Origin: Apostichopus japonicus
Taxonomy: Eukaryota > Echinodermata > Holothuroidea > Aspidochirotida > Stichopodidae
DNA length: 64,000 nucleotides
Reading direction: 5' to 3'
NCBI RefSeq assembly: GCF_037975245.1
Contig: NC_092564.1
Span: 13,230,484 to 13,294,483 of the forward strand
The translations under genes were made by a program, and so were the position numbers. Numbering within the stretch: position 1 is the first letter of the stretch; every line of letters starts with the position of its first letter. Positions 10,801-41,446 of this stretch are shown here, piece after piece. The notes beneath the pieces were generated by a model that was not told where the DNA came from, did not search any database, and saw only the letters and a list, made by a program, of their open reading frames with translations.

Positions 10801-13429
10801 TTAATGATTTTGGAGGGAAGTTTTGTTCTTTTAACAGACTCAGTTTAGAAAGTATCATGCAAAATAGAAAGCTTCATTTGCCAATTTGCTCTGCCCATTA
10901 CAGTACCTCTATGAGAAGCTGAACAAACTCATCACCAAGTTCCTGTCTGGCTGAGGTTAGCATCTGAATCATGATGGCTGGGGGTAGTTCGAAGAGGAGC
11001 GGTGCAAACAGAGGGCACGCCATGAGAGCCAGATGGTTGGTTACGTTCTCTCCGTCACGTCTGCTTGGAAGGAAGAAAACAAAAGGAATACTATACAACC
11101 TGTAATGGAGGTTACATTGAAGTGGCTGATCTGCATGCAGGATGCATGTTATTATGTTAATATCCATTCAGCCCTGGTAGAAGGCATCTAATAAGAGTAA
11201 CTATAACAGATTGGTGGATGGGTGGGGTGGGGTGGGGGTGAGGGTGGGGGACACATTCTACTACTAATGGACACAGCTGCTACCTTGATCTGAATGTCTC
11301 CTGGGTAGGAGGAGGCGGAGTTTCCAATGATCTGAAGCTGGGGGTGGGGTGGGGGTGGGGGACACATTCTTTTACTAATGGACACAGCTGCTACCTTGAT
11401 CTGAATGTCTCCTGGGTAGGAGAAGGAGGCGGAGTTTCCGATGATCTGAAGCTGGGGGTGGGGTGGGGGTGGGTTGGGGTGGGTTGGGGTGGGGGACACA
11501 TTCTTTTACTAATGGACAAAGCTGCTACCTTGATCTGAATGTCTCCTGGGTAGGAGAAGGAGGCGGAGTTTCCGATGATCGAGTTGCACCCAACAAGCTA
11601 TCTCTAGTTGGTGACTGATGGGACAAAGCCTCCCCATGACGTAACGGTGTTAACGATGGTAGTCTACTGCTGGCAGTGCTGTAAATCGATTGGCGAGGCG
11701 AGTGCGATGACTGCGGCTGTAGCAAGGTTCCATCGGACGCTGTGTTCACCAATCTTTGTCTAACCCTTTCTCTATCCCTCTGAATCTGACGATTCCTAAA
11801 CGCGGTGTAATCGTCTCTATTTGTCTGTCGTGACAGCAAACGAGCAGGCGGTTCCTGCACCAGCGGAGAGATGCTTCTCATGCCACGCAGTTCACGACCG
11901 CCAAACAAATTTGGCTCGTTTTCGTCAGATATAGGGGATGAGTTCAAATCCTGACCAACTCTGTTTGAAAGACTTGAAAACGGTGAAACATTTCGGCTAG
12001 CACGCACGACCCGTGGTCTCTCTGAAAAGGAACTAGATGCATTTGTCCTGATCTCAGGGCTACCTAATCTGAATAATTCATAGCTCAAGAGATCATCATC
12101 ATGTTCGTCAGAAGAAGACTCCGAATCCACTTCATCCCTTGTTCCTAATGATACAGTTCTCTCAGTTGTTAATCGTTCTAAATTGTCTCTTTGAAACCTG
12201 CCATATGCATTCTGTTCAGCAGGTGTAATTCTGTTTTGAAGTCTACTAAAGTTAAGGTTCCTCTGCCTATCTACAACTCTATCTCCATCCAAAGCTGGAT
12301 AAGTTCTGGATAGGGGTGAACTCGAATCCAGAGAAATCCTATCCCTCGGTGAAAAAGTTTCCAATGAATTAGAATTGGACATTGGACTGGTCAAGCCAGA
12401 GGCCAAAGAATGACCGTCTGATTGCTGCTCTTGTGTTGCCATTAATAATGGTGATGAGTTCATCACTCCACCCTCTGATGCCTGACTCCCAACTTGATTA
12501 CTTCTCAAGCTACGTACGGAACTGTTGGGGATTCTTTCGTCCATGTCACTTCGGTTTATCAGTTCACTTGAAAGTGGATTGCAATTTTCCCTGAAGATAT
12601 GTAAACTTCCTACTGGACTGGAACTCTCTGTTTGCTTTTCTGAATGTTTTACAATTCTTGAATCATTACTGGTTCCCTGAGAATTAATATTTCCATCTGG
12701 AGGCAGAGAGCCATGACTTTCTCCACCAACAGACTGTACTGTTTTACTATCTTTCACACGAACTCCCACTGCCGGTGGTCTTGTCGTCGACGATTTGTCA
12801 TGTGATTGACCACGTGAGAAGTTCGACGAAGGTTCATTACCACCGTCCGAGCTTTGCCGTTTCACAGGTAAACTGTTCGGTGCAGTCTCACATACCTCCC
12901 GAGTAGCTTTCTGTCCTATTTTGTTCTCCCTCGTCGATTTCTGTTGCCGAAAGTGCTTCCGAGTAATTTTGTTTAAATTCCCATGATTTGGCGTATTTCT
13001 GTTTGGGGCATCCCATACTCTGCCTTGGTCTTTCCCCAGGTCAGTAAAACCTGAGGTGTTTACCTTGGGGACGTGTTGATCTCTTTCTTTCTTACGACTG
13101 ACGTCGCTGGTAACTCTTCTCTTTACGTGTCGTTTCTGTTTTGCCGATGATTCATCGTCTTTATTCTCTACTTCGTGACTCTCCTTCTTCTCCTTTCTTT
13201 TCGGAATAGCCCCAGCATGGTGAAGCGACTGCGCTGACGGTTTGGTGTTCTGTGCGACGACTAGTCCAGGTTTCCGCCATCCTCTCTGAAATGGTATAGG
13301 CTCACCAGATGTTGACATTGAATGTGTCCTTAGGTGCGGTGTCCTGCCACTAGTTCCAACTTGAAGTTCCTTCCCCCGATCTGTAGGACCCTCCCGTCTT
13401 GAGTTGGTGAAGTTCGGTGATGGCTTCAT
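7824..13429 (-). CDS. Praja-like RING-H2 E3 ubiquitin-protein ligase
   Basis: The predicted protein is about 796 aa in five coding exons: 11529-13429, 10907-11060, 9752-9899, 7978-8093 and 7824-7895. All phases agree; all junctions except the last acceptor are GT-AG. Exon 1 encodes some 633 residues of Ser/Arg/Asn-rich, low-complexity and probably disordered chain. The small exons encode a helical segment (FELPPAIMIQMLTSARQE), a linker (RPPPATEELIENL) and the RING: KCAICHVEYE, then TELSCCHFFHSTCISVWLNK. The order linker, TEL-C-x-H-FF-H-x2-C, SVWL matches Praja E3 ligases, which transfer ubiquitin from an E2 to substrates. The last exon reads SGRLCKLCRRE, supplying the seventh and eighth zinc cysteines, with KL where Praja has PV and one extra residue. 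The first ATG after an in-frame stop is at 13427-13429. The acceptor before the last exon reads TTAA instead of TTAG (see findings), so the gene may be an allele with impaired splicing or carry a sequence error. Praja versus another RING-H2 family rests on motif resemblance. Confidence 0.8.
9605..9645 (-). ncRNA. Degenerate hammerhead-ribozyme-like motif
   Basis: On the minus strand the order is: GCCT (stem I), CTGAAGA (fits CUGANGA), a five-base-pair stem II GATCC/GGATC with loop TGCTA, then CAAA where active hammerheads have GAAA, TGTC (cleavage-site-like GTC), and AGGC pairing back to GCCT. Such minimal hammerheads are known from Penelope-like retroelements and retrozymes. The G to C change in the GAAA core predicts that this copy is inactive. 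It lies in intron 3 of the Praja-like gene. The family assignment is inference. Confidence 0.45.
11245..11580. repeat. Tandem duplication of the Praja-like exon end and splice donor
   Basis: Three tandem copies share the segment that contains the 3' end of the large exon, its splice donor and the start of the intron. Donor-equivalent GT positions are 11528 (real exon end 11529), 11394 and 11283, so the spacing is 134 and 111 bp. The copies are joined by G-rich spacers of GGGGTGGGGTGGGGGTGGGG type. On the gene strand the order is the real donor followed by two intronic copies. Confidence 0.85.
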
Positions 13430-13521
13430 ATTAATACGTGTACAGTACACACTTTTCTTCAAACCAGAGGAACTCTTGTGAGATGAAAATGACTTTGTTC
13501 TACCTCTTCCATGTTTTCAGT
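13427..13521 (-). promoter_or_regulatory. 5' UTR of the Praja-like gene with an upstream ORF
   Basis: A splice acceptor (TTCCTTTCTAG) places the exon start at 13521. An ATG at 13510-13512 opens a 17-codon frame (MEEVEQSHFHLTRVPLV) ending with TGA at 13459-13461, before the main ATG at 13427-13429. The main frame upstream of its ATG is closed by a TGA right after the acceptor. An upstream 5' non-coding exon must exist but I could not place it. Confidence 0.5.
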
Positions 13522-19960: not shown

Positions 19961-22900
19961 TTACTTCTTCCGTCCGGGGAGGGTCCCCATGTATTTGCAG
20001 ATGATACTCAACATTACCTCATCTGCTCCACCTCCAATAGAACCTAGCCTAAATTAAAAAGAGGAAAATACAGAAAAGTGTTTGAACCATTCAAGAAACC
20101 AGCATGCAACTATGATATGGCGAGGAGGCCAGATGTGGCAACCCTTCCTCACTTTGAAACCTTTCACATTTTAATGAATCCAAACTGGTGTTTGTAAACG
20201 TGGGTTATAAGAAAGCAATTGTTATAAGTGGCATATGTATGTGGAGTAGGAAATGTGGTCCCCTCAGGGGCAATTTTGATGGAAAGAAAATAATTGGGGA
20301 TGTATTCTGTACCTGCCGTCACGGAACGTTCTGCTAACAGGATTGTGAGTAAACCCAGAACCACCTAAATATTGTAGACAAGAGTCGCTCACTTCACGGC
20401 AGAGACGACCGCCTTTAAGTTTCGCCATCGACGCACGCTTTGTGACATCCTGACCGTCTAAAAATTTGCCTAAAGTAAAAGTAAGATCATGTTTAATTGC
20501 ATAAAAAAACTGACTTATTGAAAGTGATAGCTGGAGGTCAATTATTTTCTAAATGTAAACCCAATCGAATTTAAGCAAACTCCAATATACCCAAATTTTC
20601 TCCCCTCAGACCCTTCCCGTGGACAACAAAAATCCCCCACCCTCTGTATGTAAGTGTCGGTTGCTCCCCCTCCATGGCGTGCAGAATTCTGGTGAAACAG
20701 ACAACACCTCAGGAAAAATATCGCCCTGGCCCATAGACCAGATCGAATATGGAACTGTAGGTTGGAAATTTACAACCATCTGTTACAAAATAAATACTGA
20801 AACGTACCGACAGTTCTGTAGAGCACGGATCTAAGCAGTTCAATTTCCGTTGCCAGCTCAGCCATTCTGAAATGGACCACCTGATTATCCAGTATTGGTT
20901 TCCCAAAGATCTTCCTCTCTCGACAGTAGTCAATCGTGTAAGCAATACACTTCTCTAAGCCAAGAAGGACTACAAGTGAATAATTTCAATATTAAAATTA
21001 TACCCATTTCGAAGCATGCGACTGTCAGTTAGATCAAATATTTAGAGTCGATAATATTCTGGACAATGAATAAATAACCAAAATGAAAACTTTTCATGGT
21101 TCCTTGCTGCTGCTCATTGATTTGATAAACAGGGAACACTCCAAATATGTAATGATGATGGGTTTGGATATTATGCTAAACTTTCACCTCTTCTAGCTAG
21201 AAAAACTAAACACACATGATGAATCTTTGAATGTGTAATGATAGTTCAAGCCATTATGTACATATCATCATAGGCGAAGGAGGCGGGGGCTGGGGGCTGC
21301 AGCACCCCCCCTAAAAAAAAAACAATTGTGAAAATTCGGGCAATATGCTGAGAATTTTTCGGGCACCTACTGAAAGAAAAATAAATTGCAATGTGTTTTT
21401 CAATGGTTAAACTTCTATTATGATTATCGTTATGATTGTAACGACCTCCCCAAAATTATAACCAATATGGAAGGGTAATAAAACGGCAAATGATTGTATG
21501 TAATTGGCATGCGATGTAATAACCGATGCATGCCTATATTATATGCACATTAAGGTGTTGAACGCGCACATTTTGGTTATATTTTTCGGGCAAGTCGTTA
21601 CAGCCCCCCAAAATCAAATTGGGCTCCTACGCCTATATGCATATCATACGGTGGGTAGGATATATGTCAGTTGAACCTTTCTCTATAACGCGCCTTGGAA
21701 AGTGACGAATTCAACCGAAAGTCAATCGAACAATTAGTTGAGATGCGACAACTATACCTTCAGTCTTTACCACACCAACTGTGATGATATGGAAATTCCT
21801 GTCGTTTTGTGAACTTGGTAAACATGAAATGGTTAATAAATTTATGTAATGATCAGTAGTTTTTTCCAGCCAACAAATCAGTTAAGTGGTACTGCGGTAG
21901 CCTGAATCAATAACTATAAAAATCACGAATCTATCAGTTACACCCACCCGATGCAACTCCAAATAATCTTTCTTCTTGGAACTGAAGCATCTGGTAGGTA
22001 AATCCCTGACCCTCGTCTCCGATGAGATACTTTTGAGGGATTCGGACATCTTCGAAGAAGACTTGAGCAGTGTCTGATGAGTGCATACCAATCTTTTCTA
22101 TCTTCGTAGTTCTGTCAACTCCTATAAGAGAAGAAAATATAGGACATTAAAAGTAAATATTAACTCTACAATTATTTCTCTTTGTAGAGCAATTTCCTTG
22201 TATGAAAGAAGCCTAGGTACTTTTAATGATATGGCAGTTATATATGGGAAAGACAATTTAGCATCCAAAGGTTAGCCTGAATTTTTGTGGAGTTTTAATA
22301 AACCTTTAGTATCCAAGGGCAGGCAGATCAGGGATTTGTTGAAAAAGGCTTTCTCTCCTCCAGTGTTTGCTAGCAGACACATCCAGTCAGCCTGTGTGCC
22401 TGATGTAATCCACATTTTAGCTCCATTGATGATGAAGTCGTCGCCATCTTTGACCGCGGTAGTTGTGATATCTTTTAATGAAGAAAGCATTCTCATTATC
22501 AAACAAAATCAAACCATCGGAATCATTTATGTTTTACAAAATCTATCATCATGTTCGGGAGGCCCGTTTTCAAATCAAGGGCTTGCCTTTGATTTAGCAA
22601 AAAGGAAAGAATTACGAATTTCTGACATGTCCCCTCCCGCCGCACCCACCCATCCCCACCCTCCACTTCGGTACCAACGAGCCTGTAGATTATGACAACT
22701 CTATTTTATTTATTTATTATAGATGAACGGATGGATGGATGAATGGATGGGGGTGGGTGGGTGTTTGGGTGGGGGCATGTTCCTTACATCAAACAGGTAA
22801 ATGAAACGCTGAGTCATGGATCTCACTTACTTTGTCTCATGTATTTTGACCTATACCATTTTTGTTCGCCTACCCCCCCCCCCTTCACCAACCTGCTGAG

Positions 22901-25315
22901 CCAACTCCACCTCCCAACCATCACCAGCATCTTTCCTAACAATCCTTCATTGATGTGTGATAAACTGGTGCACAAAATTCTGGATTACTTTATAGCGGAT
23001 TGAAATCTGCATACTTAATTAAGACTTACTAGCTACATCAGATCCGGCACCTGGTTCACTAACACCAAGACAAGCAACATAATCTCCTGAAATTGTGGGG
23101 GCTAAGAAATGTTTTCTTAATTCATCAGAACCAAATCTGTCATGAAAATTAAAATTTGAAAAAAAAACGTTACCGGGATTAATTTATCACTTGAAAGCTC
23201 AGAGAGCTGTCCAATTGTGTGGGAGCGGGATGTGATGTTTGGGAAGAGCTGACGCGTTTGTAAACTCCATATATGTGTAATGGGATATGTTTTTTAACAA
23301 GTTTGGATCTTGGCTCTCTTGGGGTGTTTCATCATCCACAATAACTAAATACAATACATTCTAACAGTGTCCCTAAACACATTTAAGTCCAATGGATGCA
23401 AAACATTATGACTTTTGTTTAGTCTTTACCTTAATCTAGCTTCAAGCTGGTATTTGTCTCCGCGTAAGTACTCGCCCCTCCCTCTCCTCCTCAAGAATCC
23501 ATCCTTTTCATCATCCCTATCCTCCTTATACGCTCAACTTCCTCCGCAAGATTCCATCCTCCATTAACCATATCTCCCTTACCCTCCTCTCCCCTCATCC
23601 TCTTCGCTTTTCTGCTTATAACGATTTAAGCACTGCATGCTTGCGTAAATTCTCAACATGCTCGTAAGCCATGAGCTATTTGGTATATAACTCGACAAGG
23701 CTTATATGCAAAATATTAATTTGAATTGACAATTGCGAATTCTCGCACGAATAACCCAAATATCATGATGACGAGAGAACTGACCTAGCCAGAGCTGGTG
23801 TAGCCATATCTGTTTGTACTCCTATAGCCATGGGTATACCACCACAGTCTATGTTTCCTAGTTCTTCTGCTACTGCAATGCTGTAACTAAAATCTAATCC
23901 AAGTCCCCCATACTCTATAGAAAAGAAGATCAGGAAATAACTGAGTAGTTATTTATTATAAGTAATAAGTGTTATAACCTCTGCACTGATTCAGTATAAT
24001 ATTCAATGATACTGCAGTGCAACATCGTATCTATAATTACAATTATGTGGTATAGTCTATCCTGAGTCTGTAGAACTGATTAAAATGTCCGAACAAAGTG
24101 TACTTGCACCTCTGTGCATTCCGTACCAGAACTTCAAGAATTTGAATGGTTTTCGACTAATGAGCAACCTTAATTAATGGCATTTCTTTTCATTGTAGGT
24201 GTAAGTTCTAAGTGTTAAGAAAATACAGAACTCTATAGCTCCTTACTTATCCTTACAAGGTCTACGCATTGACTCATTGAAATGGTTGTGTGAGGATATG
24301 TGGAGCTATACTGCAAGTTATATGGTAAATAACATAGTATATAAGATGCAATATTGATCCCTATAATCTTAAGCGTTGACTAACCTTCTGATCACGATAA
24401 TTGAGTGGTTCAAATGTTACAAAAGCTACAAACACCATAATGAGATCTACGTCGAAAAAAACAAACTTGAATTCAGCCTCAGTTTGGGTCAATTTGAATA
24501 TCATGTGAACACATGCACGGTTATTAAGGCTTTCATTCAACAAATTCCATCCATATGAATGCTGCTCTTACCGACTGGTTTATTTACTCCAAGGAATCCA
24601 TTAGAGCCAAGTATTTTCATCACTCTATGTGCTGGGAACATCTTCTCGTTTTCCCACTGCTCAACATGTGGGTTGATCTCATTTTCAATTATCTGCAAGG
24701 TGATTATTATACAGTATGGTCATTTCAATACCCATTTAAAACAGCTTCTGCATGTTGCGTCTCTCTACGCAATTAACCGACAATGAATTGACCAAAAGTA
24801 CCGAGAATTATTCAAAATAGGATTTCAATTTCCAAACTAAATAACCGTTTTACAGGCTATAGTTCACATTGTCTTTATTAATAACAAGTGAGTACTTTAA
24901 ATATTCTTTCAAAGTAACTAATTCTTTGAGTTTCATAGAGGCCAAGTCTAACCATTTTTCGTTTTTGTTTTCTTCAATGGTAACCTAATTATCACTATAA
25001 GTAGAACGAAATACGAGGGCGAACTTTGTCTCTGTACCAGCTATCTGTGAGGAATACATTCTGGAATTCCGTGAAACAGCCTACCCAATCATCCATCACA
25101 GGAACAAACATGATATTCGGTGTTAATTAACTTTAATCCGTAATTAATACCTTGCGTAGTGATTGTCTCAAAGCAATGTGTTCTTCGGTGAATATGTTCT
25201 CTTCTCTCATCGACTCAATTGAACTCTCTGCTAGTCTAGCCTGTGCGGACTGAAATCTTCTAAAGACATTCTGACTTGTAACTCGGCAACTCTGAGAAAT
25301 CCTTGAAGTCAACAT
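19961..25315 (-). CDS. Mitochondrial acyl-CoA dehydrogenase, paralogue A
   Basis: Nine coding exons: 25151-25315, 24572-24692, 23785-23914, 23030-23136, 22304-22471, 21948-22121, 20808-20969, 20313-20469 and 19961-20048. All junctions are GT-AG and phases add up to 423 aa, the usual length of a family member. Residues 1 to about 32 are Arg/Ser-rich without acidic residues, fitting a mitochondrial targeting peptide. Landmarks: [14 protein letters not shown] (96-109), the acyl-CoA dehydrogenase signature [10 protein letters not shown] (163-172), KMWITSGTQADW (193-204), FQEERLF (278-284) and [10 protein letters not shown] near the C terminus. These flavoproteins take electrons from an acyl-CoA alpha-beta bond and pass them to ETF. 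The Glu of the IYEGT motif of MCAD/SCAD is replaced by Gly (401), so the base is probably Glu281 in the ER position, as in LCAD and isovaleryl-CoA dehydrogenase. It resembles the ACAD6-like group; the acyl substrate cannot be read from sequence. The eighth exon is only of the 8b type found in paralogue B. Confidence 0.9.
21269..21639. mobile_element. hAT-like MITE with 8-bp target duplication
   Basis: The element is 371 bp, from CATAGGCGAAGGAGGC to GGGCTCCTACGCCTATATG, flanked on both sides by CATATCAT (21261-21268 and 21640-21647). Termini are imperfect inverted repeats with CA...TG ends and the duplication is 8 bp, both typical of hAT elements. It lies in intron 6 of acyl-CoA dehydrogenase paralogue A and has no transposase. 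A decayed relative lies at 17.04-17.44 kb. Confidence 0.8.
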
Positions 25316-26807: not shown

Positions 26808-27099
26808 GGGTCGCGAATTTTTCAAGTCAAGTCACAAGTCCGAAAATATGATAGAATCTGACTCGAGTCAACAACACTGACCTACAGTTTTGAACTTAAT
26901 TCAAGAATATGACGGTCCTTGTTTCATATTTTGTACGCTAGTAATGGGAAGTAAAGATAACAGGGAAATCGGTGTCAGATTTTCACATTCTACACCGTTG
27001 ACCTCATGACCTTTGATGGTCGGCGTCAATTAATCTAGGGCAATAATGAATGTTTTTTATTTGCATTATGATGTTCATCATTTTGGCATTCTAACATTC

Positions 27100-27737
27100 T
27101 AAGCTAAACTAAGCTAGGCTAAGCTAAGCTAAGCTAAGCTAAACGAAACGAAACGAAACGAAACGAAACGAAACGAAACTAAACTAAACTAAACTAAACT
27201 AAACTAAACTAAACTAAACTAAACTAAACTAAACTAAACTAAACTAAACTAAACTAAACTAAACTAAACTAAACTAAACTAAATTATACTAAACTAAACT
27301 AAACTAAACTAAACTAAACTGAACTAAACTAAACTAAACTAAACTAAACTAAACTAAACTAAACTAAACTAAACTAAACTAAACTAAACTAAACTAAACT
27401 AAACTAAACTAAACTAAACTAAACTAAACTAAACTAAACTAAACTAAACTAAACTAAACTAAACTAAACTAAACTAAACTAAACTAAACTAAACTAAACT
27501 AAACTAAACTAAACTAAACTAAACTAAACTAAACTAAACTAAACTAAACTAAACTAAACTAAACTAAACTAAACTAAACTAAACTAAACTAAACTAAACT
27601 AAACTAAACTAAACTAAACTAAACTAAACTAAACTAAACTAAACTAAACTAAACTAAACTAAACTAAACTAAACTAAACTAAACTAAACTAAACTAAACT
27701 AAACTAAACTAAACCAAAACAAACTAAACTGAACTAA
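27100..27737. repeat. AAACT pentanucleotide satellite
   Basis: About 125 units of a 5-bp repeat. The array starts with TAAGC-type units, passes through about eight AAACG units, then continues as nearly pure AAACT to the end, with rare single-base variants (AAATT, GAACT, AAACC). It ends about 195 bp before the start codon of acyl-CoA dehydrogenase paralogue B. Confidence 0.95.
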
Positions 27738-27932
27738 AAGCAGACGTCCCTGATCATGTGGCTAACATGGCGTTCCAGGGTTGTAGTAGTTGTACGAAAA
27801 GTAAACAGAGTTAGCAGTCATTGCGTAATTTGGCTAGGGCCTAAGCGATCGTACTGTACATGCAAGCAGTGTATAATTGGTTGTCTATAACTGCCAAACC
27901 CCTCACACTGAAGAACGAACTAAGAACCGAAA

Positions 27933-30900
27933 ATGTTGGCTTCCAGAGTTTCTCAGAGCTACCGATTTACAGTTCAGAATGTTTTTAAAAGATTTCAATC
28001 CGCACAGGCTAGCTTAGCAACGAGTTCAATTGAGTCGATGAGAGAAGAAAGCATATTCACCGAAGAACACATTGCTCTGAGACAGTCTCTTCGCAAGGTA
28101 GCCTAATGTGGTTGTGTAACATTACTTAGGATACGGCACAACCTTGTTTTTAGGAGCTCGTAAAAATTCCAGTTTCAGTGCTCCGAATCGAAAACATAAT
28201 GACCATGTATCAGTGCCATTCGAAAATATATGTTCCGATTGGCTGTCCATTCAACGTGTTTTCAAATTTCTTTTGTGTGTTTTGTACCCTGACATTGGTA
28301 AAAGATTTAGGCCTAGCGTTAGGGCCCGGGCCTAGTATTACTATTAGCCATTGTCATTGGCCTAAATTAGCAATATAGCCTGAACGTCTGACAATACCTC
28401 AATAGGGCGACCTAACGATTGTAGACGGTAGCTTCTTGATGCTGTGAGCTCAAATATTCTTAAGGAAAATAGTGTCGATCTCACACTGTCACAGAAACTG
28501 TTCTGTGTTTTAGTTCTCTCCAGTCAACTAGGGCTAACTTCTAACTAAGGCCTATTGCTATGTGGTTCCATTAAGACTAGTAGAGTTTGGTTTCATTAGA
28601 TTCTGGCACAATGAAAGATTTAGTAATCAGGATATCCCAAATTTATGTTACCAGGTATCAAAGTTGCTACCAGCTTCAAAGACTTTCTTTTCTTTTGCAG
28701 TTAGCCTATTTATTTCATTGTGAAAGTGACTTTCAGAGTTCCAAGGAACTGAAAATATTCAATTTTGCACAGTGTCAAACTGGGTACCTTTTATTGCATT
28801 TGTAGATAATTGAAAATGAGATCAACCCACATGTTGAGCAATGGGAAAATGAGAAGATGTTTCCAGCGCACAGAGTGATGAAAACACTCGGCTCCAATGG
28901 ATTCCTTGGAGTAAATAAACCAGTTGGTAAGAATAATGCCAATTAATAAAACTAGTATTAAGCTGAATCAGTTCATAGTATGTTCACAGTGACACTTTTT
29001 AGAGTGGTTTAAGTCTCCAGGGTTGGTACATCATAGCTATATTGCCAGTTCCCAATTATGCTATATTAGAGCCTCAACGTGCATTTCATCTCAATGGTCT
29101 GAAAATCTTCTTTGGTACTATTGTGTAGTATATATATACTCACACTTTCATGACAATGAACATATTTGGTGGGGGGGGGGGGGCTCATTCTCATAGATCA
29201 TTCTTAAGTGAAAATCCAAATAATGCCATATTGTGTCCTGTGTTTGTTTACAAATGTTCCCATTTGAAAATATTAATTGATCGTATGCATGAATTTATGC
29301 TTTGAGGTTGCAGTACTACTACTTCTACTATACACTGTAGAATTGTATGGCAGAGACTCAAGGATTCCTTTGAATATACTGTATACACAAAGTGTTAGTA
29401 ACGTTTGACACAGGATATGGATCTGTATGTTAGTAATGATGTGCAGGTTCTTTGTAGGGACTTTTGAAGGTCTCAAGGCTGGATGTGTTCCAAATGGTAG
29501 AAAGTAGGATTAAACGTAACGTTTAGGCAAACTAGGAAGAATTTGTAACTTGTTTACGTCGCGGCGTCAATCGATTTGGGAATACGAAATTGCAATAGTG
29601 ACATACACCCTTGCTTCATATACTTGTGTAACAAAGTGTTTGTGAAGAAAGTATGGCTCTTTTTCCGAAAAGATCGTTTCTAAAAGGAGCATTTAATGGT
29701 GTATGTCTTTCTTTTCCATAACATGGAATGTTGCAAATAACTGAAATAGGACACATTGCCAATGTCTGCAAAATTCTAAACACGAAAACTTAAAAATCAC
29801 AGCTTGGATGAATTTTTCATCCTTGGTATGTTGATCCAACTTAGAGATAGAGATTTTGAGAAGCTATTTGGTTTAAGTGAAGCCATATGGACAAATACTA
29901 TCAAACAGCTTCTTGTCTTCTAACCTTCATGAATTTTCTTTCAGATGATACTGTATCTTCATAAAGTTCAATGGGCATTGCAGTCTCAACCAACATCTGA
30001 AAATAAACATTTTGCATTTGGAAAGACTTCCCAAGTCCTCAAATTAGGGCATAAGATCAGTCTTGAATAGTTCAAATTAGACTTTTGTTTTTGTTTTTTT
30101 GTACCCTGTACAACAGCACGGTCTATAATATTTGTCTCTACAAGCTCATTGTACAGCAGTTGAACACTGTCTTGAAAGTGTTCAGTTATTTTATTTCCTG
30201 ATCTTCTTTTCTATAGAGTATGGGGGACTTGGATTAGATTTTAGTTACAGCATTGCAGTAGCAGAAGAACTAGGAAACATAAACTGTGGTGGTATACCCA
30301 TGGCTATAGGAGTGCAAACAGATATGGCTACACCAGCTCTGGCTAGGTAAGCACCCACAGTAGTGATAAAATGGAGTTATCTGTTTTCAGTTCACTGTTT
30401 GAGTAAACATTACGGTGGAAGATTTGTGTTTATCTTATTTTAAATCTTTTACTCTTAGCAGCAGCAAGTGCTCCACCCAGTGGGGCTGAGCAGTAACTAG
30501 ATGGGAGGGGGAACTGGTAAAGAAGTATTAGTGTATGAGATGAGATTAAGGCTGTTTTCTGTACCAAGAAATTTCTTTAGTGTATATGATGTAGCAAACA
30601 TTGACAAGAGTAGGAAGATTTTATCCGGTGACATGTGCACAGGGCTGGAAAACCTTCCGAACCAGGTTCGCGGGAGAAAATCCTGGCTGGAGAAAATAAA
30701 TCGGGAAGAAAATAGAGGAAAAAAAAGGGGACGAAAAATATTTAAAAACCATGAAGGAAAAATAAATTTCAGAAGAAAAGTTTCAGAAACAAAAGAGAAA
30801 TGTTCAGAGAGTGTGCTCGCAATTTTAGTCACAATGTAGCAGGTAATGATGTGTCCCCAACCCACTCACATGGGCAATGTCAATGGCTAGTTTCGCACAC

Positions 30901-33900
30901 TTCAGGGTATATGGGTCACACGGACACCCACGGCCCAGCGCGGGAAGATTGCTGTAATAAATCAGCCTCACGGGAAATGTTTTGAACAATATTGCTATTC
31001 CACATTTTTTGATATTTATATGGTATGTTAGTTAGTAAACGTTTTCTTTCGTATGAATTTGACTTCAGTTCAGGTGCGGGATTCCCTTCAACAGACTCAG
31101 TAATCCTGCAAAGAAAACATTTGTCTGCTGGAAGTCCCTGCATCGTTTTCTTGCATTCGCGATGAGTTTACTGATCTGCCGTTTTTTAATTCCTTTTCTT
31201 ATAGATTTGGATCTGATGAATTAAGAACGCAGTTCTTAGTTCCAACAATCGCCGGAGATTTCGTTGCTTGCCTGGGTGTTAGTGAACCGGGTGCTGGATC
31301 TGATGTAGCTAGTAAGTCATGCATGCCACCTATAATTATGTAATCCTTCCAGCGAGTTAGAAAATCCAGGTTAGCTGTTCCTCTTTTTGTCATTTAGTCG
31401 GGAGACAAAATTTTCAATGAAGGGATATGAGGAACAGTGGTATTCTTTGGTAGGAAGGGTAATCAAGTAGGTTTGTTGGTGTTAAAGGTTTCAGTGTTAC
31501 TGCTTTAAATGGCAAATTAAGTGTTGATAGATTGTGGACCCTCTAGAAACATTGTTTGGCCCTTTAAGCATCTGAGGCTCCTCAATTAAAAGTAGCTGGA
31601 CTAGTTAGTGTCACACACAGACCATTAGCTCAATTCCCAATGTGCAAAACATAACTCAAATCAGAAAACAATAACCATAATTTTATCACCAATATTAGTT
31701 CAAATCGGTATCATCTAACATAGAGATAACATCTTTTAATTCTAAAGTATTCTAAGGCCTGCTTTAATAGCCATTTGACATAAACTTCTACAGTGTATTG
31801 TATTAACAAAGTGTGCAATATCAGGGAAATTTGTCATTTTCCAAGGTTTTGGCAGCAAATCTTTCAAGATATTGCATATGGTGAAGGAGGAATGTAAACC
31901 ATCTATAGGGCAAAATTAGAAAGGTTATAAGTTATCATTTAATACCCACGTAAAGGAGCATGGCAGGATGTTAGACGATATTATTTTTATCTTATTTTAA
32001 GACATCACTACTACTGCCGTCAAAGATGGTGATGACTTTGTGATCAATGGAGCCAAAATGTGGACTACATCAGGTATGCAGGCTGACTGGATGTGTCTGC
32101 TAGCAAACACTGGAGGAGAGAACGCCCACTCCAACAAATCACTTATCTGTCTACCCTTGGATACGAAAGGTTTGTCAATTATTCAATCTGGGATTAAGTT
32201 TGACCTTTGCATTAAGTAGTTGGTCAGGTACTATACTTCAGGACAGAGGAGCATCATCTACAAACATATAGTGTGATTTGTGGAGCATTATCTACAAACA
32301 TATAGTGTGATTTGTGGAGCATCTTCTACAAACATATAGTGTGATTTGGAGCATCATCTACAAACATATAGTGTGATTTGTGGAGCAGCTTCTACAAACA
32401 TATAGTGAGATTTGTGGAGCATTATGTACAAACATAAAGTGTGATTTGGAACATCATCTATAAACACATAGTGTAATTTGGAGCATCATCTACAAAGATA
32501 TAGTGTGATTTGTGGAGCATCTTCTACAAAGATATAGTGCGATTTGGAACATCATCTATAAACACATAGTGTAATTTGGAACATCATCTATAAATGCATA
32601 GTGTGATTTGGAGCATCATCTACAAACATATAGTGTGATTTGGAGCATCATCTACAAACATATAGTGTGATTTGGAGCATCATCTACAAACATATAGTGT
32701 GATTTGGAGCATCATCTACAAACATATAGTGTAATTTGGAGCATCATCTACAAACATATAGTGTGATTTGTGGAGCATTATCTACAAACATAAAGTGTGA
32801 TTTGCGTGATACTCTCTATCAGTCATGAAGTCCTTATTCATATGGTCTTTCTCTGCTTTTATTTATTATTAATATACATATATATATTTATATATATATA
32901 TAAATATATCTGTGATAGTATATATATATGTCAATCTGTTTATATGTAAATCTGTACCACTTGGCGACTGTTCATAGGGGTTAAATGCGGTCAAGCATTA
33001 TTTTACTCAAATTGCTCAGAGTCGTGGTATGAACCACAATCATAGTATGTGTGTTCACAGCTTGTACTGTACAAGCTTGTACTGTACTCACAAGCTTGTA
33101 CTGTACAAGCTGATGGACATAATATGTTTTTGCCATGAACAGTGGTCGAAACTTAAAAATATCAACAAACTGTAGCGTGAGAACTATATGAAACATATTT
33201 GGGTTTATGATATACATAATTCACATAAATTAGTATGAGAAATATGCTCATAAGTCAGCAACATATGATGAAATAGCATGACAAACTTGACCATAAGTCA
33301 ATGTTATGTTCTTGTATTGGCAAGAAAGGATCACTGATATGCTTTCTTGTTCTGAGGTTGTAGGCTGTATTTCTGTACTTATTTCTCCAAGGTGTCCATC
33401 GAGCTAAGAAGATAGAAAAGATTGGTATGCACTCATCAGACACAGCTCAAATCTTCCTGGAAGATGTCCGAATCCCTCAAAGGTATCTCATCGGAGACGA
33501 GGGTCAGGGATTTACCTACCAGATGCTTCAGTTCCAAGAAGAAAGGTTATTTGCAGCTGCTGGGAGTGAGTTGTTTGTTTCATAAACATTTTACGGTCAA
33601 CGTCCGGACATAAACATGAATGGATCAGTAGAAAGTTTCAAATACCACACCTTGAATATCCCTTCATTCATCTACAATGAATATTCATATGAAACCACTA
33701 TGGAAGCTTGCCTCATTTGCATATCGTCGATCATTCCTCCAATCATAGCAAAGATAGTTATAGAGAGTCATTGAACAACTTGCCTTGTTGAACTTGTAAG
33801 AAGATTTGAAAATGTTTCTGAAAGCAATGAATATCATTGAAAAAATTGTTTAAAAAACACTGGAAAAATTGTGAATAGTGTGTTGTCATTTTTAAAAGCC

Positions 33901-36900
33901 CTATGGCCATATAAACATATTTAGCAATTCTTTATCACTTAAAAACTGTTATAGCTATTATTGTGCCTGATAAAATGGAATATAATGAAACTAAACCTAG
34001 GACATTCAAGTAGAATGGCAATATAATTATACAATGGTTGACAGTACACATTTGTGTTGATTTGTCACTGGGCTATAAACTAGCCAATCTAGCTAGCTGT
34101 AGTTTACGTGGTTCAAATGTATAAATGTAATACTTTAATGATCTTATTGCAGTCCTTGCTCCATTGGAAAAGTGTATTGCTTACACGATTGACTACTGTC
34201 GAGAGAGGAAGATCTTTGGGAAACCAATACTGGATAATCAGGTGGTCCATTTCAGAATGGCTGAGCTGGCAACGGAAATTGAACTGGTTCGTTCTATGCT
34301 GTATAGATCTGTGGGTAAGTTTTAAGATTGTCAAATATTGTGTGGACCTGAATGAAGTATTTATAGCGTTGGCCTACTACTAATAAAGTAGAAGTTCATG
34401 ACTACTCTCTGCCAGTAAACTTTGCGCAGATGTGATTTGCAAGTATGCCATGTGAAACTCTGATTATATTTCTAGATTATTGTAAACTTAATAACATGTT
34501 TGTTAGCCTCTATATAGCTGTTGCACAAGGTGATAGGGTAAGGCTTTCGTTGCTGTAAATGTTACAACAGTTTTCATGGAAAGCACCTCACAGTGCTACT
34601 GGTTTAGTTTAGCCTATAAATTTCTCATAAGCCTTTCATGTCATTTCTTCAAGTTATGGGAAGTCTTATATCCAAGCCAATTGAGAAAAAAATATTAAAG
34701 AGTAAAATGAAGTGTTATTTGTATCAAAATTGATCAAGAAATTAATTTTCTTATATCATTTTAAATTCACCTTACAAAATCCACAACTTTGAATAACTTT
34801 CAGGTCACTTTGGCTTTCATTGGATGTGGGTTGTATCGTTGGTATCCAATTTGTCAAAATCAAAGTGAATAATTTATCGCTAGTTTAAGGCCAAGATCCA
34901 AGTGTTCGACAGATATTAACCTGCAGATCATCTGTGGTTGTCTTGCCTTAAATTACATCCCCCAGTTACAGTTACAATCTTGGAGAATGAAATTCTTATA
35001 TCATCAATAAGATATATAATAGTAATGGTTGTGATGAGCAAATCCCTGAAACAGGTGTGAAACTCTGTATTTAATTTGGAAGATATTTGGGACGTCATTA
35101 TACTTTGAAACACCTGTGGAAGTCTGAAAAAAGACTCTGTTATTACATTAGCCAATATTTGTACTGCCTATGTTAACTTTTAATTTGTTTGTATTCTTTG
35201 ATGAGTTTTCCAAATGTAGTAAGTTTTGAAATAAGGTAGCAGTTTGCACCATCAACAACTAGAATCGGACCACTTTATTCCTGTTGTGGTTTCTTTGGGA
35301 CCACACTATTCTGTTGCTGTTGCTGTTGGACCTCTATATTTCCTGTTGTGGTTGCTGTTGGACCACTATTTTCCTGTTGTGGTTGCTGTTCACACTTAAC
35401 ATGTTGTTTTTCAGGTTCTGAGTCTTTTCAGTAATGCACTTTAATTTGCTCCCTACAATAGCTCTTTACCTAAAAGGACAAGACGTGACCAAACTTGCAT
35501 CCATGAATAAACTTAAATCTGGCCGATTGGCTAGAGAAGTAGCTGACTCATGTTTGCAGTACTGGGGTGGCATGGGGTATACCGATGAGGTGCCTGTCAG
35601 CAGATATTATAGAGACTGTCGGTAATGCATCATTATTATTTCAATTCTTTCTTTCACTAAAAGTTTAATTAAGTAAGTGACACACCATCAGTGAGGATAT
35701 GGGGAATGAGTTCAAAAGCTGATGCGCAGATATTATTAAATACATCTTCAGTATCGGGCCTAATACTAGCCTCTCATGAATTAAAGACCTACTAATTTCT
35801 GGGCACAATCTGGAACCAATAGAGACAATTTTGCGCCCCGATTGGAGATCATGATCGAACATGATATCAATATGAACAAAATGATACTGTTGACCTGTTA
35901 TATCCAGGCAATTTATAAATAGGAAAAATTCAAAATATGCTCAAAATGCAAAGCTTCAGTGTCGGTTAAAAGCTATTCTTTCCTGTCTTAGGTGATGGTG
36001 TTTCTACTTATTACTTTTATTATTCTGTTCCGACATCACTACTTGTGGTGATGTAAAAATAATTTCTGTTTTTCTTCCACGCTAGCCAAGTATTTAGACG
36101 GAAATGATGTGACAAAGCTCGCAGCAATGGCGAAACTTAAAGGCGGTCGTCTCTGCCGTGAAGTGAGCGACTCTTGCGTGCAATATTTAGGTGGTTTCGG
36201 GTTCACTGAGAATCTTGTTAGTAGAATGTTCTTGGATGGCAGGTATGAAGAACAATTTATACGTTCATGTGCTTTGCTTACCAGCCATGCAGTGCAAGCA
36301 CTACGGATGACGCAAAATTAAGCGGCTTAAAAAATATTTCACCAGCGCAAGGAATCATTGCTTTAGACATTGTTCATTGTCCCATCACCTTTTTGCCTTC
36401 ATCATGTACTCATATCAAAGTAAATGGTTTGGTCTTTGGTTAATTTTTAGCAGTAAGTATCTTAGCATGAAGTCCCTCAAATGTTGACTGGCAGTGTGTC
36501 ATGATGATGGTGATAAGCACTCAATTTTTCAACCCATGACCCATTTGACTTGTTACTTGCCTTCAAGGACTTGACTTGAGGCTTGCCTTCAGAGGCTTGA
36601 GAGACTTAACTTGAGGCTTGCCTTTAAAGACTTGTATTGTATGTATTTTAGATCCTTCTGCAAGCAGGAACTCTCGAAGAAGCCATCATCGGCTTATCAA
36701 AGCCGCAAGCTGACCGAAGTCAGTCTCTTTGATTCATATTTAACGTTCATGATTATGAATTGTCAATTGTCAACAACTCTGTAACTAGACTACACATTAA
36801 TCTTGGAGTGACCTTATAATTGGAAGGCACCGGCGTTAACCACTGAGCTAACACTCCATCATAGATTGCCCTCATAGATTTGAGACTTGCCTTCAGAGGC

Positions 36901-38053
36901 TTGAGACTTGACTTGAGGTCTTGATGACAATGTAAGGAAATGTTCCTTGTTAAAAAAAACCTTTCCTCTGTGTTATTATGTGAAAGATGAAGGTGTATAT
37001 ATACATAATGATAGTTTCAAATTATCTTGAATATACTTTCGGTTAAATTCTTGAAATTAACATCCTGTGGATTCACAATAAGTATCCTATTTAGTGAGCT
37101 ACTAATTTAATTCTGCTGTCTGCTTGACGACCAACTACATCATAAAGGTTCTCGCATATTTCCATGATCACACCGAAAATTGTTTCCAAAAAAAAGGTTA
37201 GAAACTGTTCATTCTGTCAGTATAAGTGCTCTCAAACATGATATGTGAGGACAGTGTAGAGTGCTATTAGCAATAGAAAATTGTCCCAATTAGCTGAAGC
37301 ATTCACTTTATTATCAAAATGACTTTCCAAATATGATGTATTCATTCTTTCAAAAAGAAGGACATTTATTGTGAATATTTTGTGGGTGAAGAATTTGTTA
37401 GATGTCATATGTTAGTTATCGACTGCTAGGGGTGGATTTTGTTTACCCTAGTTTTGACCTATATGTCAAGTAGAGGATAAACTGTACTTCTTGAAATAAT
37501 TAGTCATCAGCTTTGCTAAAATGCAAGAAAATACAATTCATGATATCATCAATATTATTTTTTTAAGCTGTTCAAATTTATGCACAATTTTTGGAAGAAG
37601 ATGATTAAGTTATGTGACCTGATGTTTTTTTAACTTTTTGATTATTCTTCTTCTTCGCTCTATTAAATTTCCGAAATAAATCCAAGGTGATCTTATCACT
37701 ATTAGTTGGATAGCCACCAGATGTTAATTGTAACTATTTATACTTTGTCCTTCATGTGAATGTGTAGCTGCCTAACGTGTTAAAAGCAGTCTACCTTTCA
37801 AGCAGATTGTTAAATATTCAAATCATTTTACATCCTGTTTTGCATTAACCTAGAAATGCCGCAAATGCGGTGTCAGTAACAGCATCTTTGGTAAGGTGAT
37901 GTTGGACTGGAGAACACATAGTACTAGAAACCTCTTCTGTAATATCTTTCTGGTTTCTGTTTCAGGCTTCTTTCCATCGGAGGTGGAGCAGATGAGGTTA
38001 TGTTGAGTATCATCTGCAAATATATGGGATCCCTGCCCAAACAGAAGAAGTAA
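27933..38053 (+). CDS. Mitochondrial acyl-CoA dehydrogenase, paralogue B, with alternative exon 8
   Basis: Coding exons: 27933-28097, 28806-28926, 30217-30346, 31205-31311, 32002-32169, 33392-33565, 34153-34314, then either 8a (35462-35621) or 8b (36086-36242), and 37966-38053. Every exon except 8a equals its counterpart in paralogue A in length and phase, and introns fall at identical places, so the two genes arose by duplication. The product is 424 aa with 8a or 423 aa with 8b. The N terminus is a basic, hydroxylated mitochondrial presequence ([20 protein letters not shown]). The [10 protein letters not shown] signature, the EERL candidate catalytic Glu and the [11 protein letters not shown] terminus are conserved. 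[11 protein letters not shown] replaces MWITSGTQADW of paralogue A. Start context is GAAAATG with A at -3. The role is FAD-dependent acyl-CoA oxidation in mitochondria; the substrate is unknown. Introns are longer than in paralogue A and hold a 32-bp minisatellite. Confidence 0.9.
32248..32804. repeat. Intronic minisatellite, 32-bp unit
   Basis: About 17-18 tandem copies of GAGCATCATCTACAAACATA followed by TAGTGTGATTTG, with small length variants (extra TG before GAGC, AACATC, ACACATAG). It lies in intron 5 of acyl-CoA dehydrogenase paralogue B; paralogue A lacks it. Confidence 0.95.
35462..35621 (+). CDS. Alternative exon 8a of acyl-CoA dehydrogenase B
   Basis: 160 nt, entering in phase 1 and leaving in phase 2, with acceptor CCTACAATAG and donor GTAATG. 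It encodes [20 protein letters not shown] and continues through [20 protein letters not shown] to YRDCR. The QYWGGMGY and PVSRYYRD pattern is the standard acyl-CoA dehydrogenase C-terminal motif, so 8a is the canonical-looking version. Joining 8a directly to 8b gives a TGA within eight codons. Confidence 0.85.
36086..36242 (+). CDS. Alternative exon 8b of acyl-CoA dehydrogenase B
   Basis: 157 nt, same entry and exit phases as 8a, acceptor CCACGCTAG and donor GTATGA. It encodes [20 protein letters not shown], then [20 protein letters not shown] and MFLDGR. It is one codon shorter than 8a, loses the Pro of PVSR and changes YRD to FLD. It is close in nucleotide sequence to exon 8 of paralogue A (20313-20469), showing that the 8b type existed before the gene duplication. 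Confidence 0.85.
36640..36860 (-). mobile_element. tRNA-derived SINE-like element
   Basis: On the minus strand the head at 36801-36857 reads GGAGTGTTAGCTCAGTGGTT with a perfect A box (TAGCTCAGTGG), followed by a degenerate B-box region. A body follows with a GGCTTTGATAAGCC hairpin and CTTCTTCGAGAGTTCCTGC. It sits inside a run of ACTTGAGGCTTGCCTT repeats (36.54-36.64 and 36.87-36.93 kb). It lies in intron 8 of paralogue B. Confidence 0.5.
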
Positions 38054-39334: not shown

Positions 39335-41446
39335 TAATAATAATAATAAATGAGACTTATATAGCGCCAAATCAGTAAACAAAAGTTACTGCTCAAAGCG
39401 CTTTACAAAGAAAGTAAATTAATTTACAAAAGAACAAGTGAAAAAATGGGTCTTAAGTAGACTTTTGAAAGTAGAAAGTTTATAGCATGTTCGAATGTGA
39501 TCTGGTAACTTGTTCCAGAGATAAGACCCAGAGTATTGGAAGCTTCTGTAACCATAGTTCTTCAATCGTGGTTTTGGAACAGTTAAAAACAGTTTGTTGG
39601 AGGAACGAAGTGTGCGAGTTGGAGTATATGGCAAGAGAAGTTGTGACAGGTACACAGGCCGTTCAAGATGATGAGCACAGAAGGTGAGAAGAAGTATTTT
39701 ATACTGGATTCTGTAGCTGATAGGTAGCCAATGAAGTTCCTTCAGAAGTGGGGTGGTGCGGCACTTTCTTCCTTTCCTTTTCACAATACGGGCAGCGGTG
39801 TTTTGGATCTTTTGGAGTTTCTTGATGGTCGAATCAGGAAGGCCAAATAAAAGTGAATTAAGAAAATCAAGCTTTGATGTCACAAACGCATGGACCAGTA
39901 TCTCGCAAGTCTTATTATCGAGGTAATTCCTCATCAAACTGATTTTCCTAAGTTGCCAATTTGCAGAACGACAGAGATTAGTAACGTGATTTTCAAGTGA
40001 CATGGTCTGGTCAAAATATGCACCAAGGTTTCTAACAGTTGAGGAGATATTAATAGAGTCTTTACCAACAGTAAGTGGTGGAAAATTAGGTGTAACTTCA
40101 GAGAAACGTGATCGAAAAACAATAAACTCTGTTTTATCACAGTTTAGTTTCAACTGATTAGTTGTAAGCCAAGTGTTTACAGCACTTATACAGGTTTCCA
40201 TTTTATGAAAAGCATTTGGCACATCATCCTTATCGAAAGCAAGAAGTAATTGAGTATCATCCGCATAATGATGGAAATGAACACCATGGTGCCGAATAAT
40301 ATCACTCAACTCCGCAAGATATAAAGAAAAAAGAACAGGTCCAAGTACAGAGCCCTGTGGAACACCAGTAACTAATGGACGAGGAGACGAGAGAACATCT
40401 TCAATTTTCACCTGTTGATAACGCTCAGTAATATAAGAATTGAACCAGGATAGAACAGTACCACCTAATCGATACTTTGACTGCAGTCTTTCTAACAAAA
40501 TGGAATGATTAACTGTATCAAAAGCTGTTGATAAGTCTAAAAGAACTAAAAGGACAAAGCAGTCTTCATCAAGCTTGGATGTAATAAAATTATGAACTGC
40601 ATTGAGGGCAGTTTCCGTACTGTGACCAGACTTATAAGCTGACTGGTATGGTTCGAGAAGATTCTCCTGTGTAAGATAATCCATTAAGCGAGATAAAACT
40701 GTCTTTTCCAAAACCTTTGAAACGAAACTCAAGTTCGAAATAGGGCGATAATTTTTTAAACAGTTTCTATCTAAGCTGGTCTTTTTAAGTACAGGAGTCA
40801 CATGAGCAACCTTAAAGGAATCGGGTACGGTTCCTGTTGACATAGAAGTATTGACAATATTCGTGATGAGAAGAATGAGTTCTGCTGAACAACCTTTAGC
40901 TAACCATGTTGGCAGCGGATCAAGCATACACGATTTTGATGGAGAGTTTTTGATAATTTTAAGTATTTCATCTTCAGTAGCTTCAGAGAAACTGTCGAAC
41001 GAAGATGCAGGCGATGGCTCAGTCAAACAATTTGCAGAAAGATGAAGGCCTTGACGATTTAACATAGTACAAAGTTCCAAGATCTTGGAAAAATAAAGGG
41101 AGAATCTCTCAGATAACTCTGTATGGCAGGAATAGTTCGGCAGGATGGCACACTTCTGTTTATTTGAAAGAAAATCAACAGTCTTGAAAAGATCTTTAGG
41201 AGATGATGTATCCGCAATAATAGTGGCGTAATAATTTCTCCTTGCAATACAAATTTTGTTCCGCACAACTTTACAATGTTCCTTAAAAAGTTCTCTATGA
41301 ACAGATAAACCTGTTTTGCGCCACTGACGCTCGTGCTGTCTCCTAACTTTCTTAGCTTGGACAATATCATGACTAAACCAAGGTTCAATATTCTTGTCAG
41401 GTTTGACATGCAAAATATGCAGCAGCTGTTTGCACTGAGTATTCAA
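39335..41446 (-). mobile_element. CR1/jockey-type non-LTR retrotransposon, 5'-truncated, open reverse transcriptase
   Basis: An uninterrupted frame of about 675 codons (39419-41446) encodes the linker after the endonuclease, the reverse transcriptase and the C-terminal region. Motifs in order: NYRPISNLSFVSKVLEK, LLDLSTAFDTVNH (motif A with catalytic Asp), VTGVPQGSVLGPVLFSLY (motif B), HHYADDTQLLLAF (catalytic YADD). No endonuclease domain precedes it: a TAA stop lies a few codons upstream in frame and flanking DNA is unrelated, so the copy is truncated at its 5' end, as is common for LINEs. The 3' end carries a GCGCTATATAAGTCTCATTT tail and an ATT trinucleotide run (39335-39352). The intact frame suggests recent insertion, but without the endonuclease it is not autonomous. 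Confidence 0.85.

What the first reader, a model, noticed from the sequence alone, without database searches (positions are those of the whole stretch)
35462..36242. Frame-enforced mutually exclusive exons 8a and 8b in an acyl-CoA dehydrogenase
Two homologous exons 464 bp apart share entry phase 1 and exit phase 2 and have good splice sites. Both cannot be included together: 8a joined to 8b reads into TGA within eight codons. 8a carries the family-typical QYWGGMGY and PVSRYYRD segment. 8b changes it to QYLGGFGF, is one residue shorter, loses the Pro and replaces YRD by FLD. This would give two enzymes differing in a conserved C-terminal segment near the active site. I do not know of a described case in this family.
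Basis: partly seen in the sequence, partly recalled or inferred. Interest (0 to 1): 0.75.

Follow-up and report, generated by a model that had tools for sequence, protein, structure and literature searches.

The report
Swappable exon in echinoderm acyl-CoA dehydrogenase
An echinoderm gene for a fat-burning enzyme carries two alternative versions of one exon, and a neighbouring inverted copy of the gene keeps only one of them, which suggests an old either-or splicing switch that still needs RNA evidence.

Summary
A nine-exon acyl-CoA dehydrogenase gene (27933-38053, +) has two homologous exon-8 copies, 8a (35462-35621, 160 nt) and 8b (36086-36242, 157 nt), with the same phases and GT-AG sites. 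Including both, or neither, breaks the frame.

Its only exon 8 is 8b-type: 83% nucleotide identity to 8b, the same one-codon deletion, W377L, M380 also lost. 8b and P's exon 8 differ by dS 0.46-0.49, like the less similar exons (0.38-0.59). So the exon pair probably predates the gene duplication, and P lost 8a. With equal branch times a neutral 8b is rejected (omega 0.26, p=0.01); without that constraint it is not.

Best reading: a PKM-like either-or exon pair, enforced at least by reading frame. Splicing is not shown; a retired 8b remains possible, and exon 8 evolves faster than the less similar exons (omega 0.28 versus 0.13). Isoform B changes two residues fixed in 80 of 80 bacterial homologues (M380, R393); the catalytic glutamate lies in shared exon 6. 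New member of a known kind; literature searches listed no acyl-CoA dehydrogenase case.

The parts
27933..28097 (+). gene 1 exon 1 (from start codon; phase 0 exit)
   Evidence: reading frame and splice sites; paralogue match
28806..28926 (+). gene 1 exon 2
30217..30346 (+). gene 1 exon 3 (98.5% identical to paralogue exon 3: likely gene-conversion patch)
31205..31311 (+). gene 1 exon 4
32002..32169 (+). gene 1 exon 5
33392..33565 (+). gene 1 exon 6; encodes E281, aligned with catalytic Glu254 of isovaleryl-CoA dehydrogenase
34153..34314 (+). gene 1 exon 7 (common upstream partner of 8a and 8b)
35267..35390 (+). 31-nt x4 TGTT-rich tandem repeat just upstream of exon 8a (possible regulatory tract, untested)
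35462..35621 (+). exon 8a, family-typical version (QYWGGMGY ... PVSRYYRD), 160 nt
36086..36242 (+). exon 8b, divergent version (QYLGGFGF ... VSRMFLD), 157 nt
37966..38053 (+). gene 1 exon 9, coding part (common last coding exon, ends with stop codon TAA)
25151..25315 (-). paralogue P exon 1
24572..24692 (-). paralogue P exon 2
23785..23914 (-). paralogue P exon 3
23030..23136 (-). paralogue P exon 4
22304..22471 (-). paralogue P exon 5
21948..22121 (-). paralogue P exon 6
20808..20969 (-). paralogue P exon 7
20313..20469 (-). paralogue P single exon 8, 8b type (QYLGGSGF ... PVSRTFRD), 157 nt
   Evidence: no exon-8a relic found in P introns 7 or 8
19961..20048 (-). paralogue P exon 9, coding part (ends with stop codon TAA)

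Best explanation
Exons 8a and 8b are an old tandem exon duplication used as alternative, either-or exons of an echinoderm, presumably mitochondrial, acyl-CoA dehydrogenase. Exon 7 joins 8a or 8b, and either joins exon 9. Transcripts with both carry an early stop and should be degraded; transcripts with neither are frameshifted, so only single-exon transcripts make enzyme. The two enzymes share everything else including the catalytic Glu (E281), but differ in 54 versus 53 residues of the C-terminal helical domain that include the Q-x-x-GG-x-G segment. From recalled knowledge of the family this segment contacts the FAD of the neighbouring subunit and the subunit interface, so the swap most likely tunes FAD holding, tetramer stability or substrate range rather than the chemistry. 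The pair predates the head-to-head gene duplication; sister gene P then lost 8a and is locked in the 8b form. Shown: anatomy, frame logic, homology, conservation, paralogue pattern. Inferred: that both exons are spliced, mutual exclusion, NMD, mitochondrial location, and the functional difference.
Against: No transcript data. Codon ML with free branch lengths does not reject a neutral 8b (2dlnL about 3.1; that fit ran into its bounds). Exon 8 evolves faster at the protein level than the less similar exons: omega 0.275 versus 0.127 for exons 1, 2, 4, 5, 9 and 0.184 for all others. 8b has Leu at R393, invariant in 80 of 80 bacterial homologues and kept in P. Acceptors of both exons are in the lower part of the range and each has a better-scoring AG upstream. 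No mechanical exclusion device was found: the intervening intron is 464 nt and its 94-nt AG-free zone puts the branch point roughly 370 nt or more from the 8a donor; no U12-type introns seen; whole-intron pairing no better than 12 shuffles each. The 54-column tree does not group 8a with 8b and P. Conservation of 8b could in part reflect gene conversion with P.
Confidence: 0.65

Rival explanations
1. Retired exon: the pair was once alternative, but after gene duplication P took over the 8b form and gene 1 now uses only 8a; 8b is a relic that still looks intact.
For: 8b alone lost R393 while P kept it. ML with free branch lengths cannot reject a neutral 8b. Omega of 8b-P is 0.275 against 0.127 for exons 1, 2, 4, 5, 9; amino-acid differences 10/51 versus 25/214, Fisher p=0.17 (the 214 codons include the stop codon). 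Simulated drift at 0.225 substitutions per site leaves no stop in 36% of runs. Sharing out of tandem exons between duplicates is a documented fate (PMC9741552, section 12).
Against: With equal branch times omega is 0.26 for 8b and 0.20 for P and a neutral 8b is rejected, p=0.010. 8b has the better donor and acceptor of the two. No indel, although about 3.6 would be expected neutrally under my assumed 0.1 indel per substitution.
Confidence: 0.2
2. Not strictly exclusive: one exon is the default, and double inclusion or decoy acceptors are used to make NMD targets that lower enzyme output (a poison-exon switch).
For: Double inclusion gives a stop 135 nt before the last junction. AGs at 35415 and 35992 score above the true acceptors; the first reads into a stop.
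Against: A pure poison exon need not keep a 53-residue frame with omega about 0.25-0.28; P uses an 8b-type exon as its only exon 8.
Confidence: 0.08
3. 8a and 8b have different origins: one was carried in by ectopic recombination, or copied between the two genes after the gene duplication, rather than by tandem duplication of one exon.
For: The exon-8 tree (54 columns) does not unite 8a with 8b and P. Exons 3, 6 and 7 have low dS between the genes (0.03, 0.21, 0.24), so sequence exchange has probably occurred.
Against: 8b-P dS (0.46-0.49) matches that of exons 1, 2, 4, 5, 9, so 8b is about as old as the gene split. No third close gene was listed in the assembly. The tree is short and the 8b/P branch long.
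Confidence: 0.05

Closest known systems
PKM exons 9/10 (PKM1/PKM2)
   Same: Either-or neighbouring exons in a metabolic enzyme; the isoforms differ in activity and regulation (PMC13296549, passages). That PKM is tetrameric with two exons of equal length mod 3 is recalled.
   Different: Different enzyme; here no regulator is known and there is no RNA evidence; here a linked paralogue keeps only one exon type.
OGDH exons 4a/4b
   Same: Ancient exon duplication in a dehydrogenase-complex gene giving two isoforms by mutually exclusive exons (PMC7969005, passages).
   Different: OGDH exclusion is enforced by distant branch points close to the 5' splice site of a short intervening intron; here the intron is 464 nt and the AG-free zone only 94 nt, so that device is not met.
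KHK exons 3A/3C
   Same: Either-or exons within the catalytic domain of a metabolic enzyme (PMC13296549, passages).
   Different: Different enzyme family; the passages seen mention no linked single-form paralogue.
PGM1/PGM5 outcome of gene duplication
   Same: One duplicate keeps both tandem exons, the other loses one (PMC9741552 section 12).
   Different: Here the two genes sit head to head about 2.6 kb apart and have probably exchanged sequence.
Bacterial acyl-CoA dehydrogenases ending IGGGADEVM (80 loci); likeness to citronellyl-CoA dehydrogenase AtuD is recalled, not tested
   Same: 60-71% identity in the best segment; same position of the catalytic Glu in 80 of 80.
   Different: In the 80 loci one form only, all with M380, R393 and a residue at 384.

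Membership tests
Acyl-CoA dehydrogenase family | N-terminal, middle and C-terminal Pfam domains above cut-off | tested here: met
   PF02771, PF02770, PF00441 in isoform A, isoform B and P; PF00441 150.2, 131.6 and 128.8 bits against cut-off 22.4
Acyl-CoA dehydrogenase family | Catalytic glutamate | tested here: met
   E281 aligns with residue 254 (Glu) of 1ivh and is E in 80 of 80 bacterial homologues; in exon 6, shared by both isoforms. That Glu254 is the catalytic base of IVD is recalled
Acyl-CoA dehydrogenase family | Q-x-x-G-G-x-G segment and following conserved Arg (R390) | tested here: met
   Kept in 8a, 8b and P; each fixed in 80 of 80. R390, not R393, aligns with the GCDH Arg that I identify as R402 (numbering offset recalled); R402W loses tetramers (PMC10487539, passages)
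Acyl-CoA dehydrogenase family | Enzyme activity of isoforms A and B | not testable with these tools
   needs expression and assay
Mutually exclusive tandem exons | Adjacent homologous exons with the same phases and lengths equal mod 3 | tested here: met
   160 and 157 nt, both phase 1 in and phase 2 out, 63% aa identity
Mutually exclusive tandem exons | Only single-inclusion transcripts keep the frame | tested here: met
   double inclusion stops at the eighth codon; skipping shifts the frame
Mutually exclusive tandem exons | Both copies under purifying selection | tested here: inconclusive
   8b: p=0.010 with equal branch times, not rejected with free branch lengths; 8a keeps all 19 near-invariant exon-8 positions
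Mutually exclusive tandem exons | A mechanical exclusion device (close branch point, U2/U12 mismatch, or competing RNA pairing); found in some but not all known cases | tested here: not met
   464-nt intron, AG-free zone 94 nt; all introns GT-AG with U2-like donors; whole-intron pairing energy within 12 shuffles, a crude test
Mutually exclusive tandem exons | Transcripts with one or the other exon and not both | not testable with these tools
   no transcript collection available

The most novel reading that the evidence does not exclude
Isoform B, lacking M380, R393 and one loop residue, is a weak or altered subunit that co-assembles with isoform A (and with P) into mixed tetramers, so splicing sets the activity or substrate range of a mitochondrial acyl-CoA dehydrogenase, with the linked paralogue P as the fixed 8b-type partner.
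Probability: 0.12. Interest if true: 0.65.

Novelty: new member of a known kind. Interest (0 to 1): 0.45.

Why it matters
Either-or exons in metabolic enzymes are known from cases such as PKM, KHK and OGDH. A case in an acyl-CoA dehydrogenase would add acyl-CoA oxidation to the processes tuned this way. The head-to-head paralogue that has only the 8b form makes it a natural experiment on how alternative exons are shared out, or retired, after gene duplication, testable with ordinary RNA-seq and enzyme assays.

Tried and rejected
First thought that R393 corresponds to human GCDH R402 (disease allele R402W). Alignment put R402 at R390, kept in both isoforms; GCDH has Met, human LCAD Val and the 6es9 enzyme Cys at the R393 site, so R393L is unusual in the subfamily but not unheard of in the superfamily.

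Splicing motifs (seven motifs in seven regions, unadjusted): TGTT excess in intron 7 (19 versus 10.1, 0 of 300 shuffles), in the 250 nt upstream of 8a (10 versus 3.1, 0 of 300), upstream of 8b (5 versus 1.9, 7 of 300) and in intron 8b-9 (19 versus 13.0, 10 of 300); YCAY excess in intron 8b-9 (36 versus 24.6, 2 of 300) and downstream of 8b (10 versus 4.0, 1 of 300). The one upstream of 8a overlaps a 31-nt tandem array. Not built on.

Errors mended: one search used a wrong end for exon 6 (corrected). One search took wrong frames for some loci (redone, 80 of 80 loci). The 'all but 8' row left out the wrong stretch and is not used; one search replaces it, and because exon 8 then came out faster than the less similar exons I lowered the main confidence from 0.68 to 0.65 and raised the retired-exon rival from 0.18 to 0.20. 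One codon of 8a (position 384) was dropped before the codon models.

Literature (open-licence papers only). (mutually exclusive + acyl-CoA dehydrogenase + exons): 25 papers, 20 listed, none about alternative exons of this family as far as titles and abstract starts show. (acyl-CoA dehydrogenase + exon duplication + alternative splicing): 1 paper, on pine genomes. The other searches were 22, 25, 40, 41, 49 and 59. Seen beyond listings: passages of PMC9741552 and its section 12, and passages of PMC10487539, PMC7969005, PMC13296549 and PMC1940037. Structure prediction never ran, so there is no model.

Full report

THE HOST. Contig C35 of the assembly encodes cox1 followed by what I read as nad4L, then cox2. 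The cox1 frame is open under several mitochondrial codes, but residues that I recall as conserved (for instance FSTNHKDIG) come out only with AAA as Asn. By recalled knowledge that code and gene order mark an echinoderm; the species is unknown to me. A mitochondrial location of the enzyme is inferred from the family and the N-terminal extension, not tested.

THE PARALOGUE. On the minus strand, head to head and about 2.6 kb away, lies a second intact nine-exon gene P, 25315 down to 19961, open to its stop. In the 54 matches listed for the whole 671.6-Mb assembly, exon-8 matches of 60% identity or more are only 8a, 8b and P (counts are lower bounds). P has a single exon 8, and it is of the 8b type: 83% nucleotide and 79% amino-acid identity to 8b, against 69% amino-acid identity to 8a. 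It shares with 8b the missing position 384, W377L and loss of M380 (F in 8b, S in P). The exon-8 tree joins 8b and P with 0.97 support. Exons 1, 2, 4, 5 and 9 of the two genes differ by dS 0.38-0.59 each (0.51 together), 8b from P exon 8 by 0.46-0.49, and exons 3, 6 and 7 by 0.03, 0.21 and 0.24, a sign of sequence exchange. So 8b is about as old as the gene split, and 8a, more distant from both, is older. The simplest history: an exon duplication, then a head-to-head gene duplication, then loss of 8a from P. No exon-8a relic is detectable in P introns 7 and 8, though the sequence just upstream of 8a matches P intron 7 slightly better than most shuffles. Against this history, the short exon-8 tree does not unite 8a with 8b and P.

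WHAT CHANGES IN THE PROTEIN. Of 126 positions at least 97% fixed in 80 bacterial homologues, isoform A departs at three, all outside exon 8; isoform B departs at those plus M380F and R393L; P departs at M380S and at four outside exon 8. M380 and R393 are fixed in 80 of 80, and in 59 of 59 of the loci not containing the search peptide that overlaps M380. Position 384 is filled in all 80. In distant family members the R393 site holds Val (human LCAD), Met (human GCDH) or Cys (6es9), so Leu need not kill the enzyme. R390, aligned with GCDH R402, whose Trp variant loses tetramers (PMC10487539, passages), is kept in all three. The catalytic Glu by alignment with IVD Glu254 is E281, encoded by shared exon 6. 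The C-terminal domain score falls from 150.2 bits (A) to 131.6 (B) and 128.8 (P). The FAD and subunit-interface role of the exon-8 segment is recalled from the family's structures and was not modelled here; structure prediction never ran.

HOW EXCLUSION MIGHT WORK. The intervening intron is 464 nt; the AG-free zone before 8b is 94 nt, so its branch point should lie some 370 nt or more from the 8a donor, too far for the device used by OGDH (PMC7969005, passages). No U12-type introns, and no pairing between whole introns beyond 12 shuffles each (crude). Frame plus presumed NMD is the only enforcement seen; a regulator acting on the exons, as in PKM (PMC13296549, passages), would have to do the rest.

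VERDICT. A real, probably functional either-or exon pair, a new member of a known kind, made more informative by the linked paralogue. No such pair in acyl-CoA dehydrogenases appeared in searches 21 (20 of 25 papers listed) and 50, which cover open-licence papers only. RNA evidence is missing and decisive.

Noticed in passing
19961-25315 (-) and 27933-38053 (+): Head-to-head acyl-CoA dehydrogenase gene pair with uneven divergence: exon 3 is 98.5% identical and the similarity extends into the end of intron 2, other exons are 83-93% identical, most introns unalignable; suggests patches of gene conversion.
   Followed up: partly
27099-27738: (CTAAA)n array, about 128 copies, lying between the two divergent start codons.
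   Followed up: no
32248-32804: 32-nt unit repeated 17 times in intron 5.
   Followed up: no
39419-41446 (-): 675-aa open reading frame with a reverse transcriptase domain (PF00078, E 5e-34), a retroelement just downstream of the gene.
   Followed up: partly
11525-13462 (-): 645-aa open frame, Ser/Arg rich by eye, no Pfam match.
   Followed up: partly
G000:C29:14745-31219: cox1 pieces in several places on a second contig besides the mitochondrial-looking contig C35: misassembly or nuclear copies.
   Followed up: no
35415 and 35992: AG sites scoring above the true acceptors of 8a and 8b on a small matrix; use of 35415 reads into a stop.
   Followed up: partly
G000:C4 (about 4.70-5.35, 7.90, 8.87-8.88 and 25.81-25.86 Mb): Many other acyl-CoA dehydrogenase C-terminal domain matches, some closely clustered, on the same contig as the window.
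   Followed up: no
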